A DNA stretch of 64,000 bases from the NCBI GenBank assembly GCA_903813345.2, contig CAIIXF020000012.1:30467001-30531000 (forward strand), read 5' to 3'. This DNA is from Owenia fusiformis (taxonomy: Eukaryota; Annelida; Polychaeta; Sabellida; Oweniidae). This document shows positions 2,575 through 49,010 of this stretch, piece after piece (the stretch's first letter is position 1; each line of letters begins with the position of its first letter). The translations under genes and the position numbers were made by a program. Under the pieces are notes generated by a model. The model had not been told where the DNA came from. It was given only the letters and a program-made list of their open reading frames with translations, and ran no database searches.

Positions 2575-2768
2575 GATAAATAAAATAGGAAGGTAGGATA
2601 GGATAGAATAGGAAAGAACGATAGGATAGAATAAGAAAGAAGGATAGGATAGAATAGAATAGAATAGGAAGAAAGGATAGGATAGGATAGGATAGGAAGG
2701 AAAAGATATGAAGGAAGGATAGATAGGAAGGATAGGGTAGGATGAGATAGGAAGGATGGATGAATTTT
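2575..2768. repeat. Purine-rich minisatellite block 2
   Basis: Same ggataggatag-type block as at 655, in the next large satellite unit. Confidence 0.85.
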
Positions 2769-3985: not shown

Positions 3986-4168
3986 TGGATAAATAAAATA
4001 GGAAGGTAGGATAGGATAGAATAGGAAAGAACGATAGGATAGAATAAGAAAGAAGGATAGGATAGAATAGAATAGGAAGAAAGGATAGGATAGGATAGGA
4101 AGGAAAGATATGAAGGAAGGATAGATAGGAAGGATAGGGTAGGATGAGATAGGAAGGATGGATGAATT
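3986..4168. repeat. Purine-rich minisatellite block 3
   Basis: Same block in the third large satellite unit, nearly identical in order of words to the block at 2575. Confidence 0.85.
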
Positions 4169-5399: not shown

Positions 5400-5582
5400 A
5401 AAGATGGATGGATGAAAAAGGAAGGAAGGATACGATAGAATAGGAAGGAACGATAGGATAGAATAGGAAAGAAGGATAGAACAGAATAGGAAGAAGGGAT
5501 AGAATAGGAAGGATAGGAAGGAGAGGATACGAAGCAAGGGTAGATAGGAAGGATAGGATAGGATCAGAAAGAAAGGATTTAT
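5400..5582. repeat. Purine-rich minisatellite block 4
   Basis: Most diverged copy of the purine-rich block, in the fourth large satellite unit. Confidence 0.8.
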
Positions 5583-7189
5583 GCATTTTTCAATATTTTC
5601 TTCTCTACTCTTGACTTTCTATCAGGATACCATCAGATCAATTTTTCTTGAAATTTCAAAACGCAATAACTTCCGAACCGGAAGTCGGATCGAAATTTGA
5701 TTTACAGGTTCGGATTCCTGACAAAATTCAACCCCTAATTCATAACTCATACGTTAAATTTGGCGAATTTTTATTTTGCCCTACTTTTCGGACACGCCAT
5801 AACTTCGGAACCGGAAGTCAAATCGAAATTTGGTTAACAGATTTGGTTTTCTGAGAAAATTCTATTCTTAATTCATAACTCAAACGTTAAATTTGGAGAA
5901 CTTTTTATTTTGACCTACTTTTCGGACACCATATCTCAAAAGTGGGTCAAAATACTTTTTGACGGCAAAAGGTTTACGCTATTAGCACACTCTTGGCTAC
6001 ATGTATACACAATTTCGAGGAATATAATTAAAGTGTAGTGTCAGAATCGCAAAAATAAGGATAAACTATGATTTGACCTAGATTTTGACCTAGGGATTTT
6101 GGTGTCCAAATTTTGAAATAAGGTAGCCTTCGAGGTTCCCTTCTTTCATAGGCTTTCGTTATTTTAAGCTGTAATTAGTCTATATCTTGTATTTTACACT
6201 TCAAAAAAATCTTTTTTCCCATTGACATAACATGGGGCACCAAATTTAGCGATTTTAGAGCTTTCAAAATGTCATAACTTCCGAACCAGAAGTCGGATCG
6301 AAATTTGGTTTGCAGATTCGGATTCCTGAGATAATTCTGTACTTCATTCATAACTCAAACGTAAAATTTGGAGAATTTTTTATTTTGACCTACTTTTCGG
6401 ACACCATATCTCAAAAGTGGGGCAAAATACTTTCTGACGGCAAAAGGCTAACACTATTAGCACACTCTTGGCTACATGTATACAAAATTTCGAAGAATAT
6501 AATTAATCTGTAGTGTCAGAATCGCAAAAATAAGAAAAAACTTTGAATTTGACCTAGATTTTGACCTAGGCATTTTGATGTCCAAATTTTAAAGCTAGAT
6601 TGCTTTTGAGGTCCCATTCTTTTAAAAGCTTTCATTATATTTAGCTGAACTCAGTCTATATTTCGTATTTTTCACTTCAAAAAAATCTTTTTTCCCATTG
6701 ACTTAACATTGGCACCAAATTTAGCGATTTTTGAGCTTTCAAAACCCCATAACTTCCAAACCGGAAGTCTGATTCGAATTTGGTTTTCAGATTCGGAATC
6801 CTGTGAAAATTTCCGATAAGACTAATATCCTAGACATTTGATTCGGAGAACTTTTTTTTGGACCTCGTTTTGGGACACTGATATCTCGAAATCGGTTTGA
6901 GATATCAAAAAACTAAATCGACCCTAGGATTCCTACTTTTTTATAAGGAACACAATGAAAAAAACCTGGATCAAAAATATTGAAGGACGACCGAGAAAAT
7001 CGAAAAAAGTGACAAAGTACTGGATTTGACCTAGTTCTTGACCTTTGACCTAGATAAAAATTTGACCCAATTTCCGAGGAACTAGATTCTGAACCTAAAT
7101 TGACCAAATGACTGACTTTACTGAAAACCTTATGGTTATTGAGAAAACTGGGTTAGAATAAGAATAATAAGAAGAATAATAAGAATAAG

Positions 7190-7452
7190 AAAACTGACGA
7201 AAACAATAGACTCCAGATTTCATCTGGAGTCTAATAATAAGAAGAAGAAGAAGAAGAAGAATAAGAAAACTGACGAGAACAATAGACTCCAGATTTTCAA
7301 TCTGGAGTCTAATAAGAAGAAGAAGAAGAAGAATAAGAAAACTGACGAGAACAATAGACTCCAGATTTTCAATCTGGAGTCTAATAATAAGAAAACTGAC
7401 GAAAACAATAGACTCCAGATTTCATCTGGAGTCTAATAAATAAATAAATAAA
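7190..7452. repeat. Hairpin cluster with GAA and AATA microsatellites
   Basis: Four copies of a perfect hairpin, agactccagat / atctggagtct with a 3-5 base loop, lie at 7208-7232, 7284-7310, 7356-7382 and 7410-7434. They are joined by gaagaagaa and ctgacgaaaacaat spacers and end in an aataaataaata run. A fifth copy lies at 497-522 inside the satellite, so the hairpin belongs to that repeat family. Confidence 0.85.
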
Positions 7453-7474
7453 GAAGAATAACTACAAAAATGAT

Positions 7475-7498
7475 AGGAGGCCCCTTGAAGGGCCTCCT
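7475..7498. repeat. Short GC-rich inverted repeat
   Basis: aggaggcccc ttga agggcctcct-type palindrome at the end of the satellite region. It looks like a hairpin, but nothing ties it to a transcript. Confidence 0.6.
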
Positions 7499-8006
7499 AA
7501 TAATATTTTTTAAAAATTAATTTGTTAATAATTTGTGGTACTTAATTATGCTCCTTGGAATTTCAAAGAAATTTATTTCGAACACAGTAGATCAAGATTA
7601 AAATCATGACTTGTGTCAGCTATATGAATATATTTATTATGGTTTATACACACACGTACTGTATATGAATCAAAATGTGCGAATAGTTCGGTTGACTTTA
7701 ATAAAATGAATGCAATCAAATATTTGTTTTATTATTCAAAGTTATATTCCTCACTCACATTAATGGAATAGCAAAATATTGATGTCTAATTAATCATAAC
7801 AGTGTCACGTGGCTTTCGTTGGATATTGCCTCTTATTTTTTGTCACGTAAAGGACATGGACCAATCAGAGAGTAAGGAATATGTCAGTGGTATAATAGTT
7901 GATTCTGTTTCACAAGATAATGTTTTACAAATCATCCAAATTTAAAGAAACAGGTTTCCATACCTGTCAAGAAGATACAGACGCAATTATCAAAAGTGGA
8001 TCGTAC

Positions 8007-8123
8007 CTTGGTCACACCGATCTCCTTCCTTTCCCGGCTCGCAAAGACATTTGAAATTTCCCCCGAATGTGTTAATACATACGGCCTTCTTGCCATGGCA
8101 TGGGCTCGAGCTGCATGCGTCTT
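8007..8123 (-). CDS. Gene A exon 13: EGF-like module
   Basis: 117 nt between ttcatgtag and gtacgatcc, phase 1-1. It contains DACSSSPCHGKKAVCINTFG and CLCEPGKEGDRCDQ, a complete six-cysteine EGF. Twin at 41659-41775. It is the last gene A exon I can find before the satellite. Confidence 0.85.
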
Positions 8124-11100
8124 CTACATGAAAAAACAACAACTAAAATCACTTGCAAAATTCATAATTAAGAAATTTAGACCGAAGAGCAGAGGTAATA
8201 TTGTTAAATACATCCCACATGGCTAAGCACAAACGCTTTCTTTACCCCGAGCGATCGTAGGAAGTGATGGGTTCGAATGCTGTTGTGCCTAGCCCTAAGA
8301 GGTGTATTCGACGATATTGCCCATGTTCTGAGGTTTATATTGCGATTGGAACATGAAAAGTTCGCTATTACGATACGGGCCGCCGTTATGACGTCACATG
8401 TTATTCGTATAACGAAGGGTATTGTTCGTGAATATACCCCGGGTTAAATATTGACTTTGTTCACAGTTTATATAGAAGGCGTACAGTTATGTTCGAATAG
8501 TAGTCAATGATCTACCTAGCTAGGATGTGTCTCTATAAGCCATTCACCACCCACAGTTTACAGGTTTATGAAGCATCTACTAACGTCAATAGGGATACAA
8601 TCTATAAATTTGACACCTTCGGCTGCATTGTGCAGGCTCTCAACTTAAGAAATATAGACCGAAGAGCAGGGATAATATTAGGGGCCTAAGGGCTTCCCAC
8701 TAAGGGCTAAGTAAGGGCTTCCCTCCTTCGGTCGTTCAGGGCACTGAAAAAGTTTGTGCCTAGCCCTAAGGGTTATAGTCGACGATATTACACCTACTCT
8801 GAAGTCTATATTACGATTCGCACATGAAAACTCAACAAAATGTTTCAAGTATTCATTATATATCCGCCATTACTACGGCCCGCTGTTATGACATAACACA
8901 TTAAACGTATTACCACGGGCAATGTTCGCAAATATAACCCGGGTGAAATGTTGACTTTGTTTACAGTTTATAGAAGCCGTGAATACAGTCATGTTCGAAT
9001 GTCTAATATGCAAACTATTGATGTGCCATGTTCATGCAAAGTTAACATCATTTTCTACAATCCGATGATGTATTGTATTGTATACAATATAATATAAGTG
9101 ACTTTATTTTACAGAGTTGTTAATCAAGAAAATGAAACTACGATTTTGACTTTTTCTTTTTCAAAACTGTACAATGCTCTTACCATTTGAAGGCCATGAG
9201 CAGTTGGTGTTGGAATCAGGTACGTCTGAAAAATAAAATATTTGTGTAATTGAATTGTCAAGCTAAAAAGAATGGAATGTCGCATTTAGGTAATGACTTA
9301 AATTAAGCAGCTCTTGTATATATTGTAAAATCCTGCTCATTTTGGTACATCGAAGCAATTATGATATGTTGGCTGGGTTGAAGATGTCATATGATGATGT
9401 CAGATGTTATAACCTATAACCTATGACATCATAAAATCTAGTCATTACATTCTAGCGTCTTTTGGAATATCACAAGGTGCGACAGAGTTTATTAGAAAGG
9501 TCTATCTCAGGCCCATAGACCGGATTTTCCAAGTGTGGAGGGGTTGCACAGTTTCAAAAATCTTTGACAACTTTGGCCCTAAAAATGGCCGAACACACGT
9601 AAAAAGGCTCTCATAAGGGAGAAAACGGCAATCAAAATCTTACCTTCGCTGCAGTTCAGCCCTTTCTTGTTTGGAGGACACAAACACTGGAATCCTCCGT
9701 TCCAGGGGATAGCAACGCCCTCGTTGCACGGAGCTAAAAAATAGAAATCATACCGTGAGCATTTCAAGATCATAGTTTCAGGAGCGCTTACCAAACCAAT
9801 GAGTTCGACAATGCATGTAATTCCTTACCTTAAGCTTATTTCAAAGACAAAATTAAAGGGTAGGCGTTAAGTGTTCAGGTTTCTTATTCCATGAGGGGTA
9901 CATAATTCAATTAACTATGATACTACTGTCGGTGTGAAAGTTTTGACTGTTTCCTGGTTTTAAAATACTTGGTATGAAAGTCCCGGACTTTAAAATCTGT
10001 AATTGGAATTCCAATGGGAATTACGGTCTTTTGTGGACTTTAAAACCTAGAATTGATTATCAATATTAAGCCCTACTTTCACAATTATGATCTATTGTCT
10101 GAATATGGTAGAAAGTTGGCGTTACTCAAGCTCCATAGGCTAATGCTGAAAACAATTAGATGCTGCCTTGTAGCACTTTTTAAATTGAACAATTGTCACA
10201 TCCACAAAAATATATGAATGATATCATGAATCAAAGAAATTTCAACCATGATGTCATCAAATGACATAATCTAGGGTTGACATGGCAACATCAGCTTGTT
10301 TTGTATTTTCCAGGATACTTTTAAGTATGTTAAAATTACCTCGAACCCATATCTTTCATCTATTTTTTTCAATGCTGCTCCGCCTGCCCCTGACTCGTGT
10401 TACTATAGCAATTATAACTTTTTTCTTCAGGAACTTGTTCATTGTAATTCAAGATCCGTGTAGGTATACTGAGTGAAAATTTCAGCCAGATTGATTGAGA
10501 AACAAAAAAATTAGAGTACTTTAACAAGAACTTTATGAACGCCCTGTATATTAGAAATCACGACCGAGATGTAGCAGGTCCCTAAGGATATAAGTAGCAA
10601 TGCATCTTAGGATAAATACACTAAATGCCTATGGTTAATATTACTAGATAGAGTAGTACTAAGAGTAGTAGAACAGTGCCATTTGCATGTTCGAAAATTG
10701 AATAACAACAAAAACAGTGCTTACCCATCTTGCAATCTGTACCGTTTCCTTGGTAACCAGGTAAACACGTGCAACTAACACCTCCGTTTGTGTTCGCACA
10801 TTCTGCATTAATATCACAGTTGTTCAGCGCAGGATCTGTGCATGGATCCACTACGGCTTCCGTACCTGAAATATATAATTTGATTCTGTGTCATTTTGTG
10901 TCACTAGACGATTGCCATTTACGACAGAGATAATGTAACATTATACATTGTGAGATCGAGGCAGAATCAACATTTTACTTGCACTGTATTACATTCTTGA
11001 AACATTACATGTATTAACAACGATAGAGGTAATACTTTACATGATGTCCCGTTCCCTACATATCCAGATTTGCAAACACAGTTAATATGACTTGACATAG

Positions 11101-14100
11101 CATCTTTGTTTTTGTTATATGACAATTATCAATGTAAATGACAATGTAAAATTATTAATGTGAGAGTTAGATAGAAACGATTTTGTACTTGTGCATGTTA
11201 CATTACATATTGATAACGTTAGAGGTAATACTTTACATGATGTCCCGTTTCCTAGAAATCCAGATTTGCAAACACAGTTAACCTCAGTTTCACTCACAGG
11301 GGTACAGTTTGCATTATAATTACAGATGTTAAAGGGAGAATTACATGGATCTGGATAACCTGAAATATAATTTGACATAGCATCTTTGTTTTGTAATAAG
11401 ACAATTATCAATGTAAATGACAATGTAAAATAATTGATGTGAGAGTGAGATAGGAACAATTTTGTACCTGTGCATGTTACATTACATATGTAAAAAAAAC
11501 AAGAGTTCATTGTTTTTGAAAATCGACACTTGGCAAGCTTTTAAAAACCAGTGTGGTATAGAAGATGCATCAATAGTTGAATAGAGAGAACAAACGAAAT
11601 CAAAGTTTAACGTTGAATAGCCAAGTGTAAGCTACGGCCTCGGCTATTATATCCCTTGTCTTTTAATGACGTGACAGCCGTCTACGAATTGTTATCATTA
11701 AATGTTTGATACGGATAGGTAATACTTTACATGATGTCCCGTTTCCTAGAAATCCTGATTTGCAAGTACAGTTAACACGGTCGTCTGAACCAGGGGTACA
11801 TTCTGCATTAGCGTCACAGTTGTTCAGCGCAGGATCTGCGCATGGATCCACTACGGCTTCCGTACCTGAAATATATAATTTGATTCTGTGTCATTTTGTG
11901 TCACTAGACGATTACCATTTACGACAGAGATAATGTAACATTATACATTGTGAGATCGAGGCAGAATCAACATTTTACTTGCACTGTATTACATTCTTGA
12001 AACATTACATGTATTGATAACGATAGAGGTAATACTTTACATGATGTCCCGTTCCCTACATATCCAGATTTGCAAACACAGTTAATATGACTTGACATAG
12101 CATCTTTGTTTTTGTTATATGACAATTATCAATGTAAATGACAATGTAAAATTATTAATGTGAGAGTTAGATAGAAACGATTTTGTACTTGTGCATGTTA
12201 CATTACATATTGATAACGTTAGAGGTAATACTTTACATGATGTCCCGTTTCCTAGAAATCCAGATTTGCAAACACAGTTAACCTCAGTTTCACTCACAGG
12301 GGTACAGTTTGCATTATAATTACAGATGTTAAAGGGAGAATTACATGGATCTGGATAACCTGAAATATAATTTGACATAGCATCTTTGTTTTGTCATAAG
12401 ACAATTATCAATGTAAATGACAATGTAAAATTATTGATGTGAGAGTGAGATAGAAACGATTTTGTACTTGTGCATGTTACATTACATTTGTAACAGAACA
12501 AGAGTACATATTGTTTTTAAAAATCGACACTTGGCAAGCTATTAAAAACCAGTGTGGCATAAAAGATGCATCAATAGTTGAATAGTGATCAGTACAAACG
12601 AAATCAAAGTTTAAAGTTGAATAGCCCAGTGTAAACTACGGCCTTTGCTACCCCTCGTCCTTTATTGACGTGACAGCCGTCTACGAATTGTTTTTCATTA
12701 CATGTTTGATTCTGATAGGTAATACTTTACATGATGTCCCGTTTCCTAGAAATCCCGGTTTGCAAGTACAGTTAACACGGTCGTCTGAACCAGGGGTACA
12801 TTCTGCATTAGCGTCACAGTTGTTCAGCGCAGGATCTGCGCATGGATCCACTACGGCTTCCGTACCTGAAATATATAATTTGATTCTGTGTCATTTTGTG
12901 TCACTAGACGATTACCTATTACGACATAGATAATATAACATTATAAATGTGAGACCGAGGCAGAATCATAATTTTACTTGCATTTGTAAAAGGGAGAACC
13001 ACATGGATCAAAATAACCTGAACTATAATTTGACAGAGCATCTTTGTTTTGTCATAAGACAATTGTCAATGTAAATTTTCTTAAACGCGTACTTGAACTT
13101 ACGCTTTCAGGTGCACGGTTTGCATTCACAATCATTATGTAACTTTTTACTATTAGAGTAGGATTTATTCTGAATATTAAACAAACATGGAACATTATTT
13201 CACATCTTGTGCTGGATTTCTTTCGTCAAATTTGTCAACTTGCACGTATCATGATGATGCTGCTATCGTTAATCCATAACAATTAATTGAAACGGATGTC
13301 TAATATTCAATACGACAGAAAACTGAACGTTCATCGTCAACATTTCGATTTGAATGTCTTATAATTAATAATATCACTTACGTATAAGTGTTAAAATGTG
13401 TTTGAATTGTGCAGTTTTTTTTATCACAGTTGAATAAACACATCGATGGTCAGTATTTTCCCAACACGTAAAGAATAATTGTCTGTCGTTGTCCGATTTT
13501 GTCCCTTAATGCCCCATTCAAAAATAACATGTTTGTTCTTTTCAAGGGACATTACCAGACAAATAAACGCTGTAATCCAGACATCATCGGACAAAATGGG
13601 ACGACGACGGACATTGTCCGATTATGTCAGCGGGACAACAGCGGACAAGTTTGGACAAAATGGACTAACGGTCAAGCCGGACAATGTCCCATAATTCTCC
13701 ATTCTTATAAATGACAACTCTAATGACAGGGATAATACTTACATGTAACGCCGTCCCCTTCAAATCCCGGTTGGCAAGTACATGTATAATCAGATCATCC
13801 AGTGGAATAACATTCAGCATTAGAATCACAGGGGACAAGCGTCAAACATGGATCGGTTGGCAGACCTTCAATACAATTACATGTTGTGGCATTATTATTT
13901 TTATTTTAAGATGTTTATCAATTACAACTAAAGAGACAGTGTAACGTTATTGGACTGAAGCGAGATTGAGATAGAAACAATATAGTACTTGTACATTACA
14001 TATTATGAGGTTATATAATGGTTCATTCTGTATATCGTGTTTATATCGAGTGAGTATATGATATATTCACAAGTGAGCGTAGTTGTATACGATGACGATA

Positions 14101-17100
14101 TACCACTCTCCACTGTATATCGTTGTTAAAGACCCATGTTATACAACTGTAATTGGATTAACACCCAGGTATTTTTATTTTCCAAACTTCAGAGGGCTGG
14201 GAATCATTGATGCTCAACGCTTTTGAATACGATAAATGCTGTTTTAAATAGGTTTTACGTATGCCAATAATTTCTCAAATTATGAGTTGAGGATATCATG
14301 CAACAGGACAACCAACAACCAACTGTCAGAATTGAACGCAATACGTCGAAAACAGAATACAATGTTTTTTGGGGATTTAGCTATATTGTAACCCCTTAGA
14401 AGTAATAAATATGGCTTCTCTAAGCCAAAATAATCTGAAGGAAAAAGCCAATCAGACTGGAACAAATTTGAGCGGGCTTTTTAAATTTAATTTGAATTTC
14501 TATTGATGTAAGTGGAAATTCAGGGCTAGGAGCAAGGCTCAGAATTGATAAGTTGATAAAAAAATCGCTTTACAACAAATAACACTACAATATCAGGGGG
14601 TTACTCTAATTGTGTTTTTAGGAGACCCGATCTTTTTAAATATGTTTGATCTGAGATTGCTTTCATTTTTAAGTGGATAAAATTGATTTTTGTACCGGGA
14701 AATGGACACTGGCGGTGTCTGCCTACATATTATTGTAACTGCTATGCATGTAATTTAACTATTTTTAATTGTAGCGGTGACATTAACAATTCTGAACTGC
14801 CAGAATTTTATGTCAAAATGCTAGGATGCTGGCAGAAGTACAAAGCTCCAGCTAACATTAATAATTCAATTCTTTGGAACAATAATATAATCAAAATAAG
14901 TGGAAAAGCAGTTTGTTTTAAAAATTGGATTAAAAAGGGCATTAACTTTTTAAAAGACATCTGTATTAATAATGGAATAATGCCATATGAACAATTGTCT
15001 CATATCATTGGAAAAAATGCAACTACCCTAATTCAGTATATAGGCTAAAAAGCAAATATTAGCAAAAAGATTATTGTTGAACTAATTAGTTCTAAACTTT
15101 TATTGGTAGAAACATCCCTGAGAATTTCAAATGAATCCCTCAAACGGTTTGGCTGGAAACCTGTAGACAAGCCTTGACAGACAAGATTTTAGGACGGAAA
15201 ATCCAAAATGGCCGCCTTAACATTTACCCAGAATGCAGAAAAACTAATCAGTTCTAAACTTTCATAGGTAGAAACATCCCTGAGAATTTCAACAGTTTGG
15301 CTGGAAACCTGTAGACAAGATTATTCGTGACGCCCGCCCGCCCAACCGCCGGCCCGCCCGTCCGCCCGCCCGGCAAACTGATTACAATATAGCACCTTAG
15401 GGTGCGATAAAAACATTGAATGTTAGCCATCAAACTATTTCACTTCATCGTCTGAAAGATGGGTGTGACGTTATGGAAAAAGCGCCTCAATTTACCCGCT
15501 TCACTAGAATACGCTTGCTTTAAAAGCAACTCGTTCTTAATTTATAGGAAAATCGTCACACGGCCACCAAGATTGTTTTTAATTTACGGCATTTATTAAG
15601 CTGGGAGTCATGAACGTTCATCGTCAACATTTCGATTTGAATGTCTTATAATTAATAATATCACTTACGTATAAGTGTTAAAATGTGTTTGAATTGTGCA
15701 GTTTTTTTATCACAGTTGAATAAACACATCGATGGTCAGTATTTTCCCAACACGTAAAGAATAATTGTCTGTCGTCCGATTTTGTCCCTTAATGCCCCAT
15801 TCAAAAATAACATGTTTGTTCTTTTCAAGGGACATTACCAGACAAATAAACGCTGTAATCCAGACATCATCGGACAAAATGGGACGACGACGGACATTGT
15901 CCGATTATGTCAGCGGGACAACAGCGGACAAGTTTGGACAAAATGGACTAACGGTCAAGCCGGACAATGTCCCATAATTCTTCATTCTTATAAATGACAA
16001 CTCTAATGACAGGGAATACTTACATGTAACGCCGTCCCCTTCAAATCCCGGTTGGCAAGTACATGTATAATCAGATCCTCCAGTGGAATAACATTCAGCA
16101 TTAGAATCACAGGGGACAAGCGTCAAACATGGATCGGTTGGCAGACCTTCAATACAATTACATGTTGTGGCATTATTATTTTTATTATAAGATGTTTATC
16201 AATTACAACTAAAGAGACAGTGTAACGTTATTGGACTGAAGCGAGATTGAGATAGAAACAATATAGTACTTGTACATTACATATTATGAGGTTATATAAT
16301 GGTTCATTCTGTATATCGTGTTTATACTCGAGTGAGTATATGATATATTCACAAGTGAGCGTAGTTGTATACGATGACGATATACCACTCTCCACTGTAT
16401 ATCGTTGTTATAGACCCATGTTATACAACTGTAATTGGATTAACACCCAGGTATTTTTATTTTTATTTAAAAATACTAAATGGGACATTTTTCGTACCCT
16501 ACATATCATTTGATATTTAAGAAATTTGAAGGAAATTTAATATTTATTCTTCAGATTTATTAATTTTAGCTAAAACCTTGTTTCTTATTTTAATTTCAGC
16601 CTTTAAAAGTAATTAATTCCAAAATAAATGGCATTTTGCTTATCTAGGGGTCGTCAAAATACCCAGCGTGACGGCCTTTGGATTTTGTTTGAAGTTGAAA
16701 AATCAGCGTCACATTCCATTGTTACCTTAAAACTAATGACGTCATAATAAAGATCATTGTCCCAGGAAGTGATTCATACCTGTCTCATCAAAATTGATGA
16801 AAAAATAATGATTCTACATCATTTTGAAAAATAGCGCGCTCCTAAAATGTTACGCGTGACGGCATATTTCTAACGTTTTGACCCACGAAGGACGCTCTAA
16901 AATGCTCTAAAATGAAAAATTCCATGTAAAATATACAAATGAGGTTTTAGAGGGTACCTATACGAAGATTTTGATATATTACATGAGTATGTTCGCTTTC
17001 CGAACTTTCCCGATATTTACATGGTAAGAGCATGGAACGTCAAAATTTGAAATATGCCCCAGTATTGAACTTCGGTTCATAACATTATAAATGTGGGACC

Positions 17101-20100
17101 GAGGCAGAATCATCATTTTACTTGCATTTGTAAAAGGGAGAACCACATGGATCAAAATAACCTGAACTATAATTTGACAGAGCATCTTTGTTTTGTCATA
17201 AGACAATTGTCAATGTAAATTTTCTTAAACGCGTACTTGAACTTACGCTTTCAGGTGCACGGTTTGCATTCACAATCATTATGTAACTTTTTACTATTAG
17301 AGTAGGATTTATTCTGAATATTAAACAAACATGGAACATTATTTCACATCTTATGCTGGATTTTTTCGTCAAATTTGTCAACTTGCACGTATCATGATGA
17401 TGCTGCTATCGTTAATCCATAACAATTAATTGATACGGATGTCTAATATTCAATACGACAGAAAACTGAACGTTCATCGTCAACATTTCGATTTGAATAT
17501 CTTATAATTAATAATATCACTTACGTATAAGTGTTAAAATGTGTTTGAATTGTGCAATTTTTTTTATCACAGTTGAATAAACACATCGATGGTCAGTATT
17601 TTCCCAACACGTAAAGAATAATTGTCTGTCGTCCGATTTTGTCCCTTAATGCCCCATTCAAAAATAACATGTTTGTTCTTTTCAAGGGACATTACCAGAC
17701 AAATAAACGCTGTAATCCAGACATCATCGGACAAAATGGGACGACGACGGCCATTGTCCGATTATGTCAGCGGGACAACAGCGGACAAGTTTGGACAAAA
17801 TGGACTAACGGTCAAGCCGGACAATGTCCCATAATTCTTCATTCTTATAAATGACAACTCTAATGACAGGGAATACTTACATGTAAAACCGTCCCCTTCA
17901 AATCCCGGTTGGCAAGTACATGTATAATCAGATCCTCCAGTGGAATAACATTCAGCATTAGAATCACAGGGGACAAGCGTCAAACATGGATCGGTTGGCA
18001 CACCTTCAATACAATTACATGTTGTGGCATTATTATTTTTATTATAAGATGTTTATCAATTACAACTAAAGAGACAGTGTAACGTTATTGGACTGAAGCG
18101 AGATTGAGATAGAAACAATATTGTACTTGTACATTACATATTATGAGGTTATATAATGGTTCATTCTGTATATCGTGTTTATACTCGAGTGAGTATATGA
18201 TATATTCACAAGTGAGCGTAGTTGTATACGATGACGATATACCACTCTCCACTGTATATCGTTGTTATAGACCCATGTTATACAACTGTAATTGGATTAA
18301 CACCCAGGTATTTTTATTTTCCAAACTTCAGAGGGCTGGGAATCATTGATGCTCAACGCTTTTGAATACGATAAATGCTGTTTTAAATAGGTTTTACGTA
18401 TGCCAATAATTTCTCAGATTATGAGTTGAGGATATCATGCAACAGGACAACCAACAACCAACTGTCAGAATTGAACGCAATACGTCGAAAACAGAATACA
18501 ATGTTTTGGGGGGATTTATCTATATTGTAACCCCTTAGAAGTAATAAATATGGCTTCTCTAAGCCAAAATAATCTGAAGGAAAAAGCCAATCAGACTGGA
18601 ACAAATTTGAGCGGGCTTTTTAAATTTAATTTGAATTTCTATTGATGTAAGTGGAAATTCAGGGCTAGGAGCAAGGCTCAGAATTGATAAGTTGATAAAA
18701 AATCGCTTTACAACAAATAACACTACAATATCAGGGGGTTACTCTAACTGTGTTTTTAGGAGACCCGATCTTTTTAAATATGTTTGATCTGAGATTGCTT
18801 TCATTTTTAAGTGGATAAAATTGATTTTTGTACCGGGAAATGGACACTGGCGGTGTCTGCCTACATATTATTGTAACTGCTATGCATGTAATTTAACTAT
18901 TTTTAATTGTAGCGGTGACATTAACAATTCTGAACTGCCAGAATTTTATGACAAAATGCTAGGATGCTGGCAGAAGTACAAAGCTCCAGCTAACATTAAT
19001 AATTCAATTCTTTGGAACAATAATCTAATCAAAATAAGTGGAAAAGCAGTTTGTTTTAAAAATTGGATTAAAAAGGGCATTAACTTTTTAAAAGACATCT
19101 GTATTAATAATGGAATAATGCCATATGAACAATTGTCTCATATCATTGGAAAAAATGCAACTACCCTAATTCAGTATATAGGCTAAAAAGCAAATATTAG
19201 CAAAAAGATTATTGTTGAACTAATTAGTTCTAAACTTTTATTGGTAGAAACATCCCTGAGAATTTCAAATGAATCCCTCAAACGGTTTGGCTGGAAACCT
19301 GTAGACAAGCCTTGACAGACAAGATTTTAGGACGGAAAATCCAAAATGGCCGCCTTAACATTTACCCAGAATGCAGAAAAACTAATCAGTTCTAAACTTT
19401 CATAGGTAGAAACATCCCTGAGAATTTCAACAGTTTGGCTGGAAACCTGTAGACAAGATTATTCGTGACGCCCGCCCGCCCAACCGCCGGCCCGCCCGTC
19501 CGCCCGCCCGGCAAACTGATTACAATAAAGCACCTTAGGGTGCGATAAAAACATTGAATGTTAGCCATCAAACTATTTCACTTCATCGTCTGAAAGATGG
19601 GTGTGACGTTATGGAAAAAGCGCCTCAATTTACCCGCTTCACTAGAATACGCTTGCTTTAAAAGCAACTCGTTCTTAATTTATAGGAAAATCGTCACACG
19701 GCCACCAAGATTGTTTTTAATTTACGGCATTTATTAAGCTGGGAGTCATTAACAGAACTTTTAGGTTGGCGAAGGGAGATTCTTCTTTATATGCATGCTA
19801 AGTTTCAAGCTGCTAAAATATCCACCTATTCTTACATGATAAGCAAATATGTTCCTGAGCTGGGAATCTTTGAAATCGCGGAGACAGGTTTAATCACAGC
19901 GCGCAATGATATCAAATGACATCATATTTCAATTTGTGCTAAATAATTAAATACGATGACACAATTTGAAATTCGTTTACGAACGATAAAACTTATGAAT
20001 GACTTACGAAAGTGTTCTGTTAATGGCCAATTCTTAACTTTACTAATTCGTAAGTCATTCGTAACTTTTTAAATATTTACGAATTTCATAAAGTTAACAA

Positions 20101-40379: not shown

Positions 40380-43300
40380 CTGCAAATAGAAACGTACAGA
40401 TCAGTTAACAGAACATTATACGATAAAAGCCGAACACTAAATACAGTTGATTTGTGAGCAGGTAGGTTCCGGGAATTACGTTCGCATATCATGCACAAGG
40501 GGTGTGATCAAACCCCCCTTAATATATGGAAAAATAACTGACGAATTAAATTTCATATTTTGACCTAAAATCTAGAAATTGAAATATCTGAATCTCTTTT
40601 TGGGGTTGAAAGAACTCTGAACGGTTTTCCCATGTTTGTGTTCTGTTTAAAGTTTTGTCCTTTCCCTTTGGCCCTTGGGCATACTTGTACAGGCCTGATT
40701 AATCATATCAATGGAAGATTTCACTAAACACACTAAAAATTTAAACCAAGAATAAATAACTATTTGACGTCATCCAGCCTCACCTGGACATCTGCCTGAT
40801 GCTGTGATGAATCATATGAATTTAAAATCTGAAATAAAAATAACTAACTATACATGACGTCATTCAGTCTCACCTGGACATCTGCCTGTCAACCACAGTG
40901 GCCTTTAAGCGCATTGATCGCATGAACTGAGCGTCGTCGTAAACGGAGCACGTTACGTTTCTCCATCGTACACTGAAGCAAGGGAAGCAGTGGGAACCTG
41001 GATAAATAAAACAACGTTAGAAATAAATACATAAGATTTCGTGAATTATACAATTTGATATGCTAAGACGTTTGATAAGTGCTGATAATATAGTCATGAT
41101 ATGGAAACTTCAAGACCAGTGGACATAACCAATAAATAAAAATAATTTTTTTAAAATTAATTTGTTGATAATTTGTGGTACTTAATTATGCTCCTTGGAA
41201 TTTCAAAGAAATTTATTTCGAACACAGTACGTAGATCAAGATTAAAATCATGACTTGTGCATGTAAGCTATATAAATATATTAATTTTATTATGGTTTAT
41301 ACACACAAGTACTGTATATGAATAAAAATGTGCGGATAGTTCGGTTGACTCTAATACAATGAATGCAATCAAATATTTGTTTTATTATACACAGTTATAT
41401 TCCTCACTCACATTAATGGAATAGCAAAATATTGATGTCTAATTAATCATGACAGTGTCACATGACTTTCGTTGGATATTGCCTCTTATTTTTGTCACGT
41501 GAAGGGCATGGACCAATCAGAAAGTAAGGAATATGTCAGTGGTATAATAGTTGATTCTGTTTCACAAGATAATGTTTTACAAATCATCCAAATTTAAAGA
41601 AACAGGTTTCCATACCTGTCAAGAAGATACAGACGCAATTATCAAAAGTGGATCGTACCTTGGTCACACCGATCTCCTTCCTTTCCCGGCTCGCAAAGAC
41701 ATTTGAAATTTCCCCCGAATGTGTTAATACATACGGCCTTCTTGCCATGGCATGGGCTCGAGCTGCATGCGTCTTCTACATGAAAAAACAACAACTAAAA
41801 TCACTTGCAAAATTCATAATTAAGAAATTTAGACCGAAGAGCAGAGGTAATATTGTTAAATACATCCCACATGGCTAAGCACAAACGCTTTCTTTACCCC
41901 GAGCGATCGTAGGAAGTGATGGGTTCGAATGCTGTTGTGCCTAGCCCTAAGAGGTGTATTCGACGATATTGCCCATGTTCTGAGGTTTATATTGCGATTG
42001 GAACATGAAAAGTTCGCTAGTACGATACGGGCCGCCGTTATGACGTCACATGTTATTCGTATAACGAAGGGTATTGTTCGTGAATATACCCCGGGTTAAA
42101 TATTGACTTTGTTCACAGTTTATACAGAAGGCGTACAGTTATGTTCGAATAGTAGTCAATGATCTACCTAGCTAGGATGTGTCTCTATAAGCCATTCACC
42201 ACCCACAGTTTACAGGTTTATGAAGCATCTACTAACGTCAATAGGGATACAATCTATATATTTGACACCTTCGGCCGCATTGTGCAGGCTCTCAACTTAA
42301 GAAATATAGACCGAAGAGCAGGGATAATATTAGGGCCCTAAGGGCTTCCCACTAAGGGCTAAGTAAGGGCTTCCCTCCTTCGGTCGTTCAGGGCACTGAA
42401 AACGTTTGTGCCTAGCCCTAAGGGTTATAGTCGACGATATTACACCTACTCTGAAGTCTATATTACGATTCGCACATGAAAACTCAACAAAATGTTTCAA
42501 GTATTCATTATATATCCGCCATTACTACGGCCCGCTGTTATGACGTAACACATTAAACGTATTACCACGGGCAATGTTCGCAAATATAACCCGGGTGAAA
42601 TGTTGACTTTGTTTACAGTTTATAGAAGCCGTGAATACAGTCATGTTCGAATGTCTAATATGCAAACTATTGATGTGCCATGTTCATGCAAAGTAATTAA
42701 CATCATTTTCTACAATCCGATGATGTATTGTATTGTATACAATATAATATAAGTGACTTTATTTTACAGAGTTGTTAATCAAGAAAATGAAACTACGATT
42801 TTGACTTTTTCTTTTTCAAAACTGTACAATGCTCTTACCATTTGAAGGCCATGAGCAGTTGGTGTTGGAATCAGGTACGTCTGAAAAATAAAATATTTGT
42901 GTAATTGAATTGTCAAGCTAAAAAGAATGGAATGTCGCATTTAGGTAATGACTTAAATTAAGCAGCTCTTGTATATATTGTAAAATCCTGCTCATTTTGG
43001 TACATCGTAGCAATTATGATATGTTGGCTGGGTTGAAGATGTCATATGATGATGTCAGATGTTATAACCTATAACCTATGACATCATAAAATCTAGTCAT
43101 TACATTCTAGCGTCTTTTGGAATATCACAAGGTGCGACAGAGTTTATTAGAAAGGTCTATCTCAGGCCCATAGACCGGATTTTCCAAGTGTGGAGGGGTT
43201 GCACAGTTTCAAAAATCTTTGACAACTTTGGCCCTAAAAATGGCCGAAAACACGTAAAAAGGCTCTCATAAGGGAGAAACGGCATTCAGAATCTTACCTT

Positions 43301-46300
43301 CGCTGCAGTTCAGCCCTTTCTTGTTTGGAGGACACAAACACTGGAATCCTCCGTTCCAGGGGATAGCAACGCCCTCGTTGCACGGAGCTAAAAAATAGAA
43401 ATCATACCGTGAGCATTTCAAGATCATAGTTTCAGGAGCGCTTACCAAACCAATGAGTTCGACAATGCATGTAATTCCTTACCTTAAGCTTATTTCAAAG
43501 ACAAAATTAAAGGGTAGGCGTTAAGTGTTCAGGTTTCTTATTCCATGAGGGGTACATAATTCAATTAACTATGATACTACTGTCGGTGTGAAAGTTTTGA
43601 CTGTTTCCTGGTTTTAAAATACTTGGTATGAAAGTCCCGGACTTTAAAATCTGTAATTGGAATTCCAATGGGAATTACGGTCTTTTGTGGACTTTAAAAC
43701 CTAGAACTGATTATCAATATTAAGCCCTACTTTCACAATTATGATCTATTGTCTGAATATGGTAGAAAGTTGGCGTTACTCAAGCTCCATAGGCTAATGC
43801 TGAAAACAATTAGATGCTGCCTTGTAGCACTTTTTAAATTGAACAATTGTCACATCCACAAAAATATATGAATGATATCATGAATCAAAGAAATTTCAAC
43901 CATGATGTCATCAAATGACATCATCTAGGGTTGACATGGCAACATCAGCTTGTTTTGTATTTTCCAGGATACTTTTAAGTATGTTAAAATTACCTCGAAC
44001 CCATATCTTTCATCTATTTTTTTCAATGCTGCTCCGCCTGCCCCTGACTCGTGTTACTATAGCAATTATAACTTTTTTCTTCAGGAACTTGTTCATTATA
44101 ATTCAAGATTCAAATGCATAAATAGTGTAGGTATACTGAGTGAAAATTTCAGCCAGATTAATTGAGAAACAAAAAAATAGAGTACTTTAGCAAGAACTTT
44201 ATGAACGCCCTGTATATTAGAAATCACGACCGAGATGTACCGATGGCACTAGACACCCATGCTGCAGGGCATTCATGGATGATATCACAGTCATGACGCA
44301 GTCTATCCCTGGCATGCGGTGGATTCTTACAAGTCTCGAGGAAATGGCTACATGGTCCCGCATGCAGTTTAAGCCTAAGAAATCACGCAGCATGACCATC
44401 GTCAAGGGACAACCCAAAGACACACTTTCAACATCCAAGGAGCAGCTATCCCATCCATCCAAGATGAACGCATAAAGTGCTTAGGGAAAGTTTATGACGA
44501 GACTTTAAAGGATAGCAACACCACTAAGGAAGTCTTCAAGGAACTAGAAAGATGGATGGAAACTATTAACAAGAGTCACCTCCTAGGTAAATTCAAGGTA
44601 TGGTGTTTCCAGTTTGGAGTAATCCCCCGATTACAATAGCCTTTCTCCTTGAATGAATTCCCTCTATCCCTTGTCAATTCCATGGAAAGGTTGTGCAACA
44701 GATTTTTGAGGAAATGGTTAGGAGAACCTCCAAGCTTCAGCTCCTGTAACCTTTACAGCACATCTTCAAAGTTGTCCCTCCCAATTTCTTCACTGGTGGA
44801 GGAATTCAAGGTGGCCAAAGTCAGGGCCATTACAACCCTTCGAATGTCCAAAGATCCTAAGGTCCTTTCCTCAGGAGAATCAATATCAACTGGAAGGAAA
44901 TGGAAACCTCAACAAGCAATAGCAGAAGCTGAAGAACGGGAGCGACATGAGCAGATAGTTGGAGTTGTTTGCCAAGGTCGATTAGGCTTAGGCAATTATG
45001 GTTCCAAGCTATTAGAAAAGACTCCAAAGGCAAAGAAAGACTGCCTGGTAAAGCAAACACGTAAAGCGCAGGAAGAAGAACGCCTTGTAAAAGCAGTGGG
45101 GCTTTCCAAGCAGGGAAACTGGACCCAACGGGAATCAATCTGGAAAGGTCTCCTACATGGAAAGATCTTTGGACAGTTGACCAAGCAAGCCTCAGCTTTA
45201 TATTGCGCGCCTTTACTGACCTTTTACCAACTCCAACGAACCTAAGCACATGGGGCCTTGAAGATGACAACACATGCTTTCTATGCAAAAGACCCAGATG
45301 TACCCTAACCCACATCCTGAGCAGCTGCAAGACAGCACTGAGTGAAGGCCGGTACAAATGGCGACACGACAAAGTCCTACAGAAAATTGCTGAATGGGTT
45401 GACAAAGCTAGAACACACAACAAGCAACTGGTCCCCATATTTCCAGCATTTCAACTGGAGGGAAAACAACCAACTCCAAGGACTAAGAATACAGACCCAT
45501 CAATTCCTCTCTCATCACTGTCTAAGGCCTCTGATTGGAAATTGCATGTTGACCTGGATAAGAAATTAGTCTTTCCTCAGAACATAGTAGCAACAACACT
45601 ACGTCCCGACATGCTACTTCTCTCTGAAAGTTCTAAGACCATACTAGTGATAGAACTTACAGTACCATGGGAGGAAAGAATAGACATATCCCACCAACTC
45701 AAGTACAACAAATACCAAGATCTAATCCATGAAGCCCAGAGCAAAGGATGGCAAGCAAGACTATACCCTGTAGAAGTAGGATGCAGGGGCTTCCCAGCTT
45801 TGTCTCTACGCTCATTGTTCAAAGACATTGGGGTACATTCTAGCCAACTCAGACGAGCAATGAGAGAAATTGGAGCAGTTTCAGAATCGTGCTCCAGGTG
45901 GCTCTGGATACGAAGACGTGACAAATGGACCCACCACCAATAGAACGAAGAAGTTTCCATCATTCTTCAACCACCAAATGAAATGTCCCAAAGCTTCAGT
46001 CTCTGGAATGGGAGTGTTGGTACCATCAAAGATCTTAAACCAGCCAAAGGTCAGTCACAAGCCTGACGACAGAGACAGCCAAGCTTATACTACCCAAAGC
46101 TCCATCCCACTTCATCAGCTCACGAACAGTCCTATAGATGTAGCAAAGCACTTGATGTTTATACACAATGAAATTATAACTTTTTTCTTCAAGAACTTGT
46201 TCATTATAATTCAAGATTCAAATGCATAAATAGTGTAGGTATACTGAGTGGAAATTTCAGCCAGATTGATTGAGAAACAAAAAAATTAGAGTACTTTAGC

Positions 46301-49010
46301 AAGAACTTTATGAACGCCCTGTATATTAGAAATCACGACCGAGATGTAGCAGGTCCCTAAGGATATAAGTAGCAATGCATCTTAGGATAAATACACTAAA
46401 TGCCTATGGTTAATATTACTAGATAGAGTAGTGCTAAGAGTAGTAGAACAGTATCATTTGCATGTTAGAAAATTGAATAAAGAACAATAACAGTGCTTAC
46501 CCATCTTGCAATCTGTACCGTTTCCTTGGTAACCAGGCAAACACGTGCAACTAACACCTCCGTTTTTGTTTGCACATTCTGCATTAACGTCACAGTTGTT
46601 CAGCACAGGATCTGCGCAATAATCCACTTTTTTTTACTTGTGCATGTTACACTACATACATGTATGTATGTAACAAATGTAACAAAAACAAGTGTTCATT
46701 GTTTTTGAAAATCGACACTTGGCAAGCTTTTAAAAACCAGTGTGGTATAGAAGATGCATCAATAGTTAAATAGTCAATACAAACGAAATCAAAGTTTAAA
46801 GTTGAATAGCCCAGTGTAAACTACGGCCTCGGCTACCCCTCGTCTTTTAATGACGTGACAGCCGTCTACGAATTGTTTTTCATTACATGTTTGATTCTGA
46901 TAGGTAATACTTTACATGATGTCCCGTTCCCTTCATATCCAGTTTTGCAAGTACAATTAACAGCTTCGTCTAAACCAGGGGTACATTTTGCATTATCGTC
47001 ACAGTTGTTCAGCACAGGATCAGTACATGGATTTGGCACACCTGAAATATAATTTAATATTGAGTCTTTGGACATTTACCGGCTACGAGGTAGACAAAGT
47101 AACATTGTCGATATGAGATTGAGACAGAACCGATTTGTTCTTGTGTATGTTACATTTACTGTGTTAAATATTATGGAAACATTGATAGTGATATAAATAC
47201 TACTTTCCATAAATTCCTTCAAATCCCAATTTGCATACACAGTTAATAACTCCACCCGCAGCAGAGATACAGACTGCGTTATAGCTAAATAAGTTCTACA
47301 GTGCGAGGGAGACGATGTAACAATGTTTATGTGAGATTGAGACAGAAACAATACTGTATTTGTGCATGTTACCTTTACTGTACGAGTATATAGTAAACAT
47401 AACCATGGTCAGAACAAAATCACTTATATAATAGCAAGTGATAAATCACATATTTAGGACAGGGATGATATTAGGATTATGTGGATGGTATAAGGAATCC
47501 GGGTAAATTTAAATAAAAAAAATTTTAAATCATTTGTCAACAGCTACCCAGATTCATTCTACAAACAACTCGTGGTCCTTTCCTTGTTCAAAATATCATT
47601 TTTTCAAAAATTTCTTTTTTTCAAAAAATTGATTTTTTCAAATATTTTTAATTTTTGATTTAAATAAACTTCATCTTTTAATTGTTTAAATATTGTGTGT
47701 TTGTTGCCCTTAAATTCTCAATGTTACCTTATAAATTTGAGATTGGGACAGAAACGATTTTGTACTTGTGCATGTTACCTTTACTGTGTTATATTATGGA
47801 AACATAAATAATACTTTACATGTTATTCCATCCCCTATAAATCCATATTTGCAAATACAGCTAACAGTGTTGAAATTCGCGATACAGATTCCGTTACTGC
47901 TACATATGTTCTTCACAGGATCATCACATACAGTGACTACTTTTAAACCTGAAACAAAATTTGATGTTGGTTTTAATTGTTATGAAATAAAACGTTTGTT
48001 AAATGCGAGGGAGACGATGTTACAATGTTTATGATTGAGACAGAAACAATACTGTATTTGTGCATGTCACCTTACTGTACACGAATATATTATAATTATA
48101 TTACCATGGTCAGAGCAATATCAGGTATACAAGGGCCGATCCAGGATTCCTGATAAAAATGATCAAACCTAAAAGTTATCATTCATTTTGCACATTTTTT
48201 TAGAGTAACCAATAACAATTTTATATGTTGGTAACAAATATTTCTGAAGATATGGCTGCTATAGTAACCTCAGTAACGCTTTAGCGGGACAGAGTAATGT
48301 TTGCGAAGTTTAGAATTAGTTTCCTTTTGAATAAATGATCATAATTTAATTACAAGGCTGCTTAATTCTACAAATGGCTGTTTTTATAGTAACTGCTGTT
48401 AATGTCCCAATTCGTATAAGTCATGTAGGACATTCCCCATATTCCCCAGATAATGTTCCCCTTTGATATTATTACATAACAAAACTAACGTCATATATAA
48501 TGTTTAATTACAAGATATATTTGCCTTATGCCAACTCAGAACAAAGTACATATTTTCACACATCTAAGCAAATTTAACAACATTTAAGCAGATTTAGCAA
48601 CTTTCAAGTGAATTTGGCATAAATTAAGCAAAAAGTAAATTTGCCTCCGCAAAAATTTGACAAAATACATGTAAGCATAGTGTTTGTTTTTTACAAAAGT
48701 TGCATAAATGAATGACTATACAGGGTGTTCCAAAACTAACAGGATTGGTCTTGGCATTTTGTCAATTCTGCACCAACTGTCTTCACATTTCTACACAATG
48801 TATTGCAACTAAAACCCTTACGTTTCAAAAAAAATAATGAAATATCCATACAACTCTATATTTTCAAATGGGTTAAAAAGAACTCCGTTGAACCTCATTT
48901 TCTGATTTTTAGCAAAGAAAATAATATTTGAATTTCTTACCGTTAATATGCGTTACACCAATGATTAGGAATGCAAACCATATCGCTCGAGAACTCTTGG
49001 ATTGTGCCAT
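40262..49010 (-). CDS. Gene B: secreted EGF protein with GCRARF module
   Basis: Exons at 48941-49010, 47820-47948, 46916-47041, 43298-43387, 42839-42880, 41659-41775, 40874-40997 and 40262-40379 sum to 816 nt and give 271 residues plus stop. Order: signal peptide, two EGF-like modules, half-EGF exon, linker, a complete EGF, then a C-terminal module with VTCSVYDDAQF, VVDRQMSRTKC, KWGF and MWVARGCRARF. That last part follows the pattern of DUF3011 (RQ.S...C....WG......WV..GCRA.F), a module with no assigned function. The product should be secreted, since no membrane segment is seen. Two damaged exons (47209, 46501) lie in its introns. If the 46501 exon is skipped, the frame holds but the preceding EGF loses its split sixth cysteine. 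An R2-type element and a duplicated donor also sit in the introns. Confidence 0.8.
40874..40997 (-). CDS. Gene B exon 7: first half of GCRARF module
   Basis: 124 nt from ttatccag to gtgagactg, entering at phase 1 and leaving at phase 2. It encodes SHCFPCFSVRWRNVTC and VVDRQMS. The donor and about 55 bp around it are copied at 40750-40798. Confidence 0.8.
41659..41775 (-). CDS. Gene B exon 6: EGF-like module
   Basis: 117 nt, same as gene A 8007-8123, six cysteines, phase 1-1. It joins the next exon through a Gly codon (CDQG). Confidence 0.85.
42839..42880 (-). CDS. Gene B exon 5: 42-nt linker exon
   Basis: Identical to gene A 9184-9225, phase 1-1, VPDSNTNCSWPSN. Confidence 0.75.
43298..43387 (-). 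CDS. Gene B exon 4: EGF-like exon
   Basis: 90 nt, same residues and splice sites as gene A 9644-9733 (PCNEGVAIPWNGGFQCLC). Confidence 0.85.
44064..44239. repeat. Direct repeat left of R2-type insertion
   Basis: Starts aattataacttttttcttca and ends cacgaccgagatgta. It is repeated almost exactly at 46172-46348 on the other side of the insertion. Gene A has the single, uninterrupted form at 10410-10573. Confidence 0.85.
44240..46171 (+). mobile_element. 5'-truncated R2-type non-LTR retrotransposon
   Basis: The element opens inside the reverse transcriptase at AFMDDITVMTQ (catalytic F-x-DD box, 44269-44295). It continues through FKPKKSRSM, then LVNSMERLCNRFLRKWLGE (44649 frame). A C-x2-C-x8-H-x4-C knuckle (CFLCKRPRC...H..SC, 45270-45325) and a restriction-like endonuclease region (RPDMLLL...IELTVPWEE...KY, 45600-45720) end the protein at 45943. 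That order defines R2-like, RLE-bearing LINEs. The frame changes at least twice (near 44400-44460 and 45200) and a stop lies at 44638, so it is dead. It is antisense to gene B, in the intron before the 43298 exon. Confidence 0.85.
46172..46348. repeat. Direct repeat right of R2-type insertion
   Basis: Second copy of the 176-bp repeat, followed directly by gcaggtccctaagg as in the empty gene A site. Confidence 0.85.
46501..46627 (-). pseudogene. EGF exon with damaged acceptor
   Basis: Counterpart of gene A exon 10725-10865: YCADPVLNNCDVNAEC and GVSCTCLPGYQGNG, donor gtaagcact intact. The first five codons and the tttcag acceptor are replaced by aagtaaaaaaaag from intron sequence. An AG at 46627 could still be used in frame (126 nt), but it has an A-rich rather than pyrimidine tract and would lose the split cysteine. 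Confidence 0.7.
46916..47041 (-). CDS. Gene B exon 3: EGF-like module
   Basis: 126 nt between tatatttcag and gtaaagtat, phase 1-1. VPNPCTDPVLNNCDDNAKC and NCTCKTGYEGNGTS make it the counterpart of gene A exons 11731 and 12731. Confidence 0.85.
47209..47290 (-). pseudogene. EGF exon relic without donor
   Basis: NAVCISAAGGVINCVC then KLGFEG is the 3' half of an EGF exon. The usual tcatgtaaag junction has become ttatggaaag, which destroys the GT and leads into a stop. The first half is absent, as in the gene A relics at 11041 and 12041. Confidence 0.75.
47820..47948 (-). CDS. Gene B exon 2: EGF-like module
   Basis: 129 nt between ttgtttcag and gtaaagtat, phase 1-1. VCDDPVKNICSSNGIC and SCICKYGFIGDGIT carry five cysteines; the sixth comes from the next exon's GT. 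Confidence 0.85.
48718..48900. mobile_element. Possible mariner end fragment
   Basis: ta-cagggtgttccaaaac resembles the outer end of Tc1/mariner elements and the end at 55562. The other end and coding part are missing. Confidence 0.35.
48941..49010 (-). CDS. Gene B exon 1: start and signal peptide
   Basis: MAQSKSSRAIWFAFLIIGV then THIN, phase 1, donor gtaagaaat. It closely matches gene A's first exon, including the ttccagattaaaATGG context. Confidence 0.85.

What the first reader, a model, noticed from the sequence alone, without database searches (positions are those of the whole stretch)
44064..46348. R2-type insertion flanked by 176-bp direct repeats
The truncated element sits between two near-identical 176-bp copies of a sequence that is single and uninterrupted in gene A (10410-10573). 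The simplest reading is a very long target site duplication, made by staggered cuts far apart. Most LINEs make short ones; long duplications have been described for R9, an R2-related element of rotifers. The element carries a restriction-like endonuclease, which fits.
Basis: partly seen in the sequence, partly recalled or inferred. Interest (0 to 1): 0.75.

Follow-up and report, generated by a model that had tools for sequence, protein, structure and literature searches.

The report
LINE insertion with 176-bp target duplication
A broken jumping gene of the R2-like kind landed in a gene cluster and doubled 176 bases of its landing site; its relatives in the same genome make duplications of very different lengths, and each front end of a complete copy that was examined has the tail of another copy directly before it.

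Summary
A 5'-truncated LINE (44240-46171) with the end of an RT, a CCHC knuckle and a restriction-like endonuclease motif lies between repeats of 176 bp (44064-44239) and 177 bp (46172-46348). Two paralogous loci, gene A and one about 30 kb upstream of the window, carry the segment once. The repeats differ at 1.7% of sites (0.85% each); the element has 0.88% private substitutions. Duplication and insertion look equally old: a target-site duplication (TSD). The first ~153 bp belong to an old dispersed repeat, but the duplication ignores that repeat's borders.

The R9 comparison holds only in part. Relatives have TSDs of 74 bp (empty sites shown), 67 bp (unique DNA), 38 bp and 15-18 bp; 28 of 35 scorable insertions show nothing above chance. 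Long TSDs recur but vary; similar cases are published for L1. No rDNA was found near the copies.

Unexpectedly, 29 of 29 examined unit 5' ends, in six or seven families, follow directly on a 3' end of the same family, as in Penelope pseudo-LTRs. The fragment matches its own downstream unit best (14 of 18, 4 ties). This points to a template that runs past one unit.

The parts
44064..44239 (+). left copy of the target-site duplication (176 bp)
44240..46171 (+). 5'-truncated RLE LINE, 1932 bp; begins at about aa 565 of the 1134-aa ORF of relative L016; its first 2 bases match no relative; ends with the family 3' end ..TATACACAATGA
44221..44475 (+). ORF fragment with the RT motif AFMDD (its first codons lie in the left TSD copy)
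   Evidence: PF00078 E 6e-5, below the curated cut-off
45065..45943 (+). ORF fragment with CCHC knuckle and restriction-like endonuclease motif
   Evidence: (zf-RVT E 4e-7)
45275..45328 (+). CCHC motif CFLCKRPRCTLTHILSSC
   Evidence: conserved in relatives
45602..45679 (+). endonuclease core motif RPD-x14-E (RPDMLLLSESSKTILVIELTVPWEER)
   Evidence: that this motif marks a restriction-like endonuclease is recalled
46172..46348 (+). right copy of the target-site duplication (177 bp)
10410..10573 (+). empty site in the paralogous gene A, single contiguous copy (164 bp, internal ~13-bp deletion)
43966..44216 (.). right part of an old dispersed repeat into whose end the element inserted; left end not determined

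Best explanation
A LINE with a restriction-like endonuclease and an R2-like RT, not confined to rDNA, inserted by target-primed reverse transcription, probably into an intron of an EGF-domain gene. First-strand nick: before AATTATAAC (now 46172). Reverse transcription started at the element's RNA 3' end and stopped within the RT coding region. The second strand was cut or opened about 176 bp downstream, after ..GAGATGTA, so that gap filling duplicated the 176 bp. Shown: single-copy paralogous empty sites, a whole-length duplication abutting both element ends, equal ages of duplication and element within small counts, and perfect 67- and 74-bp duplications at relatives. Inferred: TPRT itself, the intron, which enzyme made the second cut (element or host), and the order of steps. 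At clade level the second-strand break is loosely placed: most scored insertions have no detectable duplication and a minority have long ones.
For: Two paralogous empty sites. L and R copies carry only private changes relative to A and L001 (3 substitutions, 1 indel), 1.7% apart = 0.85% each, against 16 private substitutions in 1826 columns = 0.88% in the element. Anchored repeats at 35 scorable insertions: 176, 74, 67, 38 and 15-18 bp stand clearly above the permuted maximum of 8. L052: 74-bp duplication; in 3 of 3 fetched copies of its host repeat (L066-L068) the two flank matches overlap by exactly 74 bp. L054: 67 bp, identical, found only at these two places in the genome. L040: 38 bp. Published staggers for RLE LINEs run from a 2-bp deletion (R2Bm) through 9 and 13 bp (R8, R4) to 126 bp (R9) (PMC6895275, passages). 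Extremely long TSDs on 5'-truncated L1 in HeLa cells (PMC2912911, passages) and in repair-deficient cells (PMC5223499, passages).
Against: 28 of 35 scorable insertions of the same clade have no duplication above chance, so the enzyme does not normally cut 176 bp apart. The empty sites are paralogs; no empty allele was available. The age estimate rests on 3 substitutions, and the 0.88% is a lower bound (only columns in which all other rows agree). A tandem duplication shortly before the insertion cannot be strictly excluded.
Confidence: 0.87

Rival explanations
1. The 176-bp segment was tandemly duplicated first and the element later inserted exactly between the copies.
For: Tandem duplication is common in this gene cluster. 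At 4 of the 39 scanned insertions (L022, L044, L053, L063) the flush repeats are better explained by older tandem repeats.
Against: Neither gene A nor L001 has a tandem copy. The element abuts both copy ends within about 2 bp. The ages of duplication and element agree. Independent perfect 67- and 74-bp cases exist.
Confidence: 0.05
2. A refinement of the same event: the long duplication reflects host repair (an unrelated host nick, or repair synthesis) completing a stalled, 5'-truncated insertion, not a stagger made by the element's endonuclease.
For: TSDs of 38 bp or more occur only on 5'-truncated single copies (4 of 19, against 0 of 16 partial-tandem insertions; chance that all four fall there 0.074). 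Large TSDs of L1 in NER-deficient human cells (PMC5223499, passages).
Against: The association is not significant here, and R9 makes a 126-bp stagger (PMC6895275, passages), so an element-made long stagger is possible.
Confidence: 0.35
3. The repeats come from two different copies of the dispersed repeat, brought together by ectopic recombination.
For: About 153 bp of the 176 bp belong to a dispersed family.
Against: Both copies include ~20 bp of unique sequence and the locus-specific variants shared with gene A and L001; the repeat continues to the left beyond the duplication.
Confidence: 0.02

Closest known systems
R9 (R9Av) of bdelloid rotifers, R2 superclade
   Same: Restriction-like endonuclease LINE with a target-site duplication above 100 bp.
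   Different: R9 inserts at a site in 28S rDNA (PMC5035012, passages) with a 126-bp stagger (PMC6895275, passages); the original R9 paper was not read. Here no rRNA gene was found near the copies and lengths range from none detected to 176 bp.
Non-site-specific R2 families (R2NS)
   Same: R2-like RT, insertions outside 28S genes (PMC5035012, passages).
   Different: The word 'tandem' does not occur in that paper's main text, so it reports no partial tandem in those words. Clade position not tested here.
L1 5'-truncated insertions with extremely long TSDs
   Same: Long, variable TSDs on truncated copies (PMC2912911, PMC5223499, passages).
   Different: A different endonuclease class (recalled); the cases seen in these passages are from cultured cells.
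Penelope-like elements with pseudo-LTRs
   Same: Partial tandem of one full and one 5'-truncated copy (PMC3846280, PMC11167929, passages).
   Different: PLEs carry a GIY-YIG endonuclease and a telomerase-related RT; here there is an RLE motif and an R2-like RT.
HeT-A/TAHRE of Drosophila and GilM/GilT of Giardia
   Same: LINEs in head-to-tail arrangement; the HeT-A 3' UTR holds a promoter that faces the downstream neighbour (PMC5537684, passages).
   Different: Those are telomeric arrays; here they are dispersed insertions, each with one truncated upstream fragment.

Membership tests
R2 clade | RT homologous to R2 | tested here: met
   Profile A2 against PDB, 5 sequences matched: three named R2 (best R2Tg, E 4e-39) and two named 'reverse transcriptase-like protein' (8gh6 E 1e-20, 8ibw; R2Bm, recalled). 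Homology to R2 does not by itself place it in the R2 clade
R2 clade | insertion in rRNA genes | tested here: not met
   No Rfam match at gathering score in 19 element loci (129 kb) or in the window; flanks differ between copies
R2 clade | restriction-like endonuclease with (R/K)PD..(D/E) motif after a CCHC knuckle | tested here: met
   By motif only: C911 C914 H923 C928 and R1023 P1024 D1025..E1040 invariant in 11 of 11 ORFs. Motif recalled; no Pfam endonuclease hit; no structure predicted
R2 clade | N-terminal zinc finger(s) plus Myb | tested here: inconclusive
   K55 N56 G59 I62 H63 C71 of a finger-like CxxC..FKNE.GVKIH...C motif invariant in 11 of 11 ORFs; the string FKNE itself in 5 of 9 ORFs printed; Myb not examined
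R2 clade versus HERO, NeSL, Dong/R4, CRE, Utopia | position in an RT/RLE tree with all RLE clades | not testable with these tools
   No reference sequences of the other clades at hand
R9 | 126-bp duplication at a 28S site | tested here: not met
   Variable lengths, no rRNA gene nearby
Penelope-like elements | GIY-YIG endonuclease and PLE-type RT | tested here: not met
   Pfam finds RVT_1 and zf-RVT only; RT matches R2; RLE motif at the C-terminus
Penelope-like elements | partial-tandem (pLTR) organisation | tested here: met
   29 of 29 examined unit 5' ends follow a 3' end of the same family
HeT-A-like promoter-in-tail elements | promoter in the 3' region of the upstream copy | not tested
   No transcription data

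The most novel reading that the evidence does not exclude
These RLE LINEs do not copy a simple linear monomer. Their template runs across the 3'-to-5' unit boundary (a circular RNA copied in more than one lap, or a concatemeric transcript), so every insertion that reaches the unit's 5' end carries on into a second, truncated lap. The upstream fragment then acts as a pseudo-LTR, perhaps carrying the promoter. The window copy would be an insertion that stopped within the first lap. That would be a Penelope-like life cycle evolved with an R2-like enzyme.
Probability: 0.35. Interest if true: 0.85.

Novelty: new variant of a known kind. Interest (0 to 1): 0.6.

Why it matters
The second half of LINE integration, second-strand cleavage included, is poorly understood (PMC6895275, abstract and passages). 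A clade whose insertions range from no detectable duplication to 67-176 bp, some with exact empty sites, is natural material for that question. The partial tandem suggests that an R2-like enzyme, a class now used for gene insertion, either nearly always jumps end to end or copies a template longer than one unit. It would also link the pseudo-LTRs of Penelope elements and the tail promoters of HeT-A to a third, independent case.

Tried and rejected
Insertion of new full-length copies at the 3' end of old truncated ones: rejected, because the upstream fragment is most like its own downstream unit (14 of 18) or tied (4 of 18), and in none of the 18 closer to another locus (e.g. L020 100% over 2155 bp, next best 87%). 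Flush repeats of 108 bp (L044), 149 bp (L063) and 160 bp (L053), and the repeats at L022, were not counted as TSDs. TRF finds arrays of matching period in both flanks of L063 and L053, but at L022 only in the 5' flank. At L044 it finds no such array; there the 108-bp repeats are only 88.9% identical while the insertion's two laps are 99.95% identical, so the repeats are probably older. HDV-like or other ribozyme: no Rfam match at gathering score in 19 loci; only twister-P5 at 24.4-24.7 bits against 37.6 in 7 loci searched laxly. Control LINE family: no same-strand overlapping pairs within 10 kb among 69 listed matches apart from one split element; weak, because only 68 of 5737 candidates were scored and partial copies score low. 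Common truncation point of L018 and the L020 fragment: probably chance. Units left out of the 29: L056 and C4:228466 (no 5' UTR motif in the letters read) and L041, L042 (begin inside the ORF). Of 51 loci with element copies (L016-L065 and the window), 12 were left out of the scan for lacking a clean junction (L024, L026, L028, L029, L032, L033, L036-L039, L049, L056). Of these, 10 were in the simpler scan (exact repeats of 10 bp or more) and showed no flush repeat; L049 and L056 were not.

Full report
Observation. The window (G000:C12:30467001-30531000) holds two copies of a 176/177-bp segment at 44064-44239 and 46172-46348, with 1932 bp of a LINE between them. They differ by three substitutions and one 1-bp indel. 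Gene A carries the segment once (164 bp, with a ~13-bp internal deletion); its left side matches 41137-44239 at 97.8% over 3.1 kb and its right side matches 46172-46628. A third paralog about 30 kb upstream of the window (L001) also has it once: the two flank matches overlap by 175 bp. An open frame on the minus strand at 46866-47075 encodes an EGF domain (PF12947), so the element probably lies antisense in an intron; the gene model itself was not built.

What the repeat is. About 153 bp of it are the 3' end of a dispersed family (41 matches listed; 40 of 226 candidates scored). In the alignment of the two window copies, gene A and 15 fetched copies (the third paralog and 14 others), the family similarity continues to the left of 44064 and ends near 44216, whereas the duplication starts at 44064 and runs ~20 bp further into unique DNA. 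Both copies carry this unique stretch and the locus-specific variants, so the right copy came from this place.

Age. Left and right copies each have only private changes relative to gene A and L001. Three substitutions in 176 bp give 1.7%, or 0.85% per copy. In the element, 16 of 1826 comparable columns are private substitutions (0.88%, a lower bound; ten aligned copies or parts of copies). Duplication and element look equally old within the error of these small counts.

The element. The open frames carry the end of an RT (AFMDD; RVT_1 23.2 bits, below its cut-off of 29.6), a zf-RVT/CCHC motif (above cut-off) and an RPD..ELTVPWE endonuclease motif. A relative (L016) has an open frame of 1134 aa, with RVT_1 at E 3e-21. 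The profile of 11 such ORFs matches five solved sequences, three named R2 and two named reverse transcriptase-like protein (R2Bm, recalled). No rRNA gene reached gathering score in 19 element loci (129 kb) or in the window. Whether the element belongs to R2, HERO or another RLE clade could not be tested.

Duplications at relatives. I fetched 50 further loci with copies, chosen by DNA or protein similarity and, for the more distant families, by open-frame length before any flank was read. Of these 50 plus the window, 39 had two usable junctions. A scan for direct repeats flush with both junctions (within 12 bp, up to 500 bp out) was compared with 156 permuted flank pairs, whose maximum score was 8. 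Four insertions (L022, L044, L053, L063) whose flush repeats are better explained by older tandem repeats were set aside; the case is clear for L053 and L063, less so for L044 and L022. Of the remaining 35: the window 176 bp, L052 74 bp, L054 67 bp, L040 38 bp, L023 15-18 bp; L019 scores 11 (poly-A) and L055 scores 10 (not flush); 28 score 8 or less. L052 is confirmed by 3 of 3 fetched copies of its host repeat, in which the flank matches overlap by exactly 74 bp. The 67-bp sequence of L054 occurs only at its two places in the genome. All four duplications of 38 bp or more are on single 5'-truncated copies (4 of 19, against 0 of 16 partial-tandem insertions, p = 0.074).

The unexpected structure. 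Four copies of the window's own family reach a common 5' end, and each is preceded, without spacer, by a 3' fragment of the same family; a search with the 5' end found these four at 89-100% identity and four more at 66-70%. In other families the same holds: family T 5 of 5 with fragments of 599 to 1875 bp, L057, L058-L060, L061-L063, L064-L065, C1:58.7M and C151. An exact search for a conserved 5' UTR motif gave 23 places, with one match to the reversed control. 14 were known; the 9 new ones all have a family 3' end directly upstream, matching at 73.5-100% and ending at the last or third-last base of the 3'-end reference. A looser pattern gave the same 23, with two control matches, and a pattern for L061-L063 gave just those three. 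With L061-L063, L064, L065 and C1, which the first pattern does not cover, this is 29 of 29. Fragment lengths in the 18 loci read in full run from 48 to 2158 bp. The fragment matches its own unit best in 14 of 18 and ties in 4, though L017 and L061 reach only 97.9% and 98.2%. The boundary sequence is the same or nearly so within each family. No locus with two complete units is in the 94 protein matches listed (91 of 512 candidates scored). Searches of this genome give lower bounds, so single full-length copies of diverged families may have been missed.

Mechanism of the tandem. Three readings remain: nearly obligate end-to-end template jumping (described for R2 RT, PMC12203849, passages; at low levels in vitro, PMC10499050, passages), concatemeric transcripts, or circular RNA. 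For a continuous template: no examined unit ends exactly at its 5' end, the junction hardly varies within families, and fragment and unit share variants. Against it: fragments are short (mean 766 bp), no second full unit was seen, and no ribozyme was recognised. A promoter in the 3' region, as in HeT-A (PMC5537684, passages), would explain why such copies stay active, but it is untested.

5' RNA. The first ~130 nt of ten units from six families fold into a row of short hairpins; 10 of 16 pairs have changes on both sides, 95.6% of cells are paired, and covariation is 0.572 against at most 0.096 for slid controls.

Known or new. A long TSD of an RLE LINE is known in R9 (126 bp), and extremely long ones on truncated L1 copies (PMC6895275, PMC2912911, PMC5223499; passages only). 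I saw no report of variable long TSDs with partial tandems in an RLE LINE clade in the listings (titles and abstract starts of a part of the hits, open-licence papers only).

Noticed in passing
L016:3173-3312 and 5' UTRs of the other families: Conserved 5' RNA with a row of GAAAG-type hairpins separated by UGAC motifs and strong covariation; no Rfam family at gathering score; function unknown.
   Followed up: partly
L021, L058-L061, L063 fragment starts; also L025, L027: 6 of 18 upstream fragments begin within 24 alignment columns around the ORF motif VEVGCRGFPA; a simulation on fragment lengths gives 0.002 under a uniform and 0.035 under an exponential model for six within 72 nt. Possible RT stop or transcript start.
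   Followed up: partly
L043-L046: Near-identical (99.9%) full-length copies with open 1154-aa ORFs: this LINE family was active very recently.
   Followed up: no
L041 and L042, around 1478 and 1459 (element orientation): Two relatives in different flanks begin at the same ORF position, inside the N-terminal finger (FKNELGV).
   Followed up: no
3' ends of the families read: Similar tail motif of the type GTAGC..GCATC..GATGTTTA, perhaps a small hairpin, directly before the unit boundary; seen by eye, not tested.
   Followed up: no
window 1-19800: Many internal direct repeats, e.g. 12935-15615 against 17079-19753 at 98.8%: a locally duplicated stretch.
   Followed up: no
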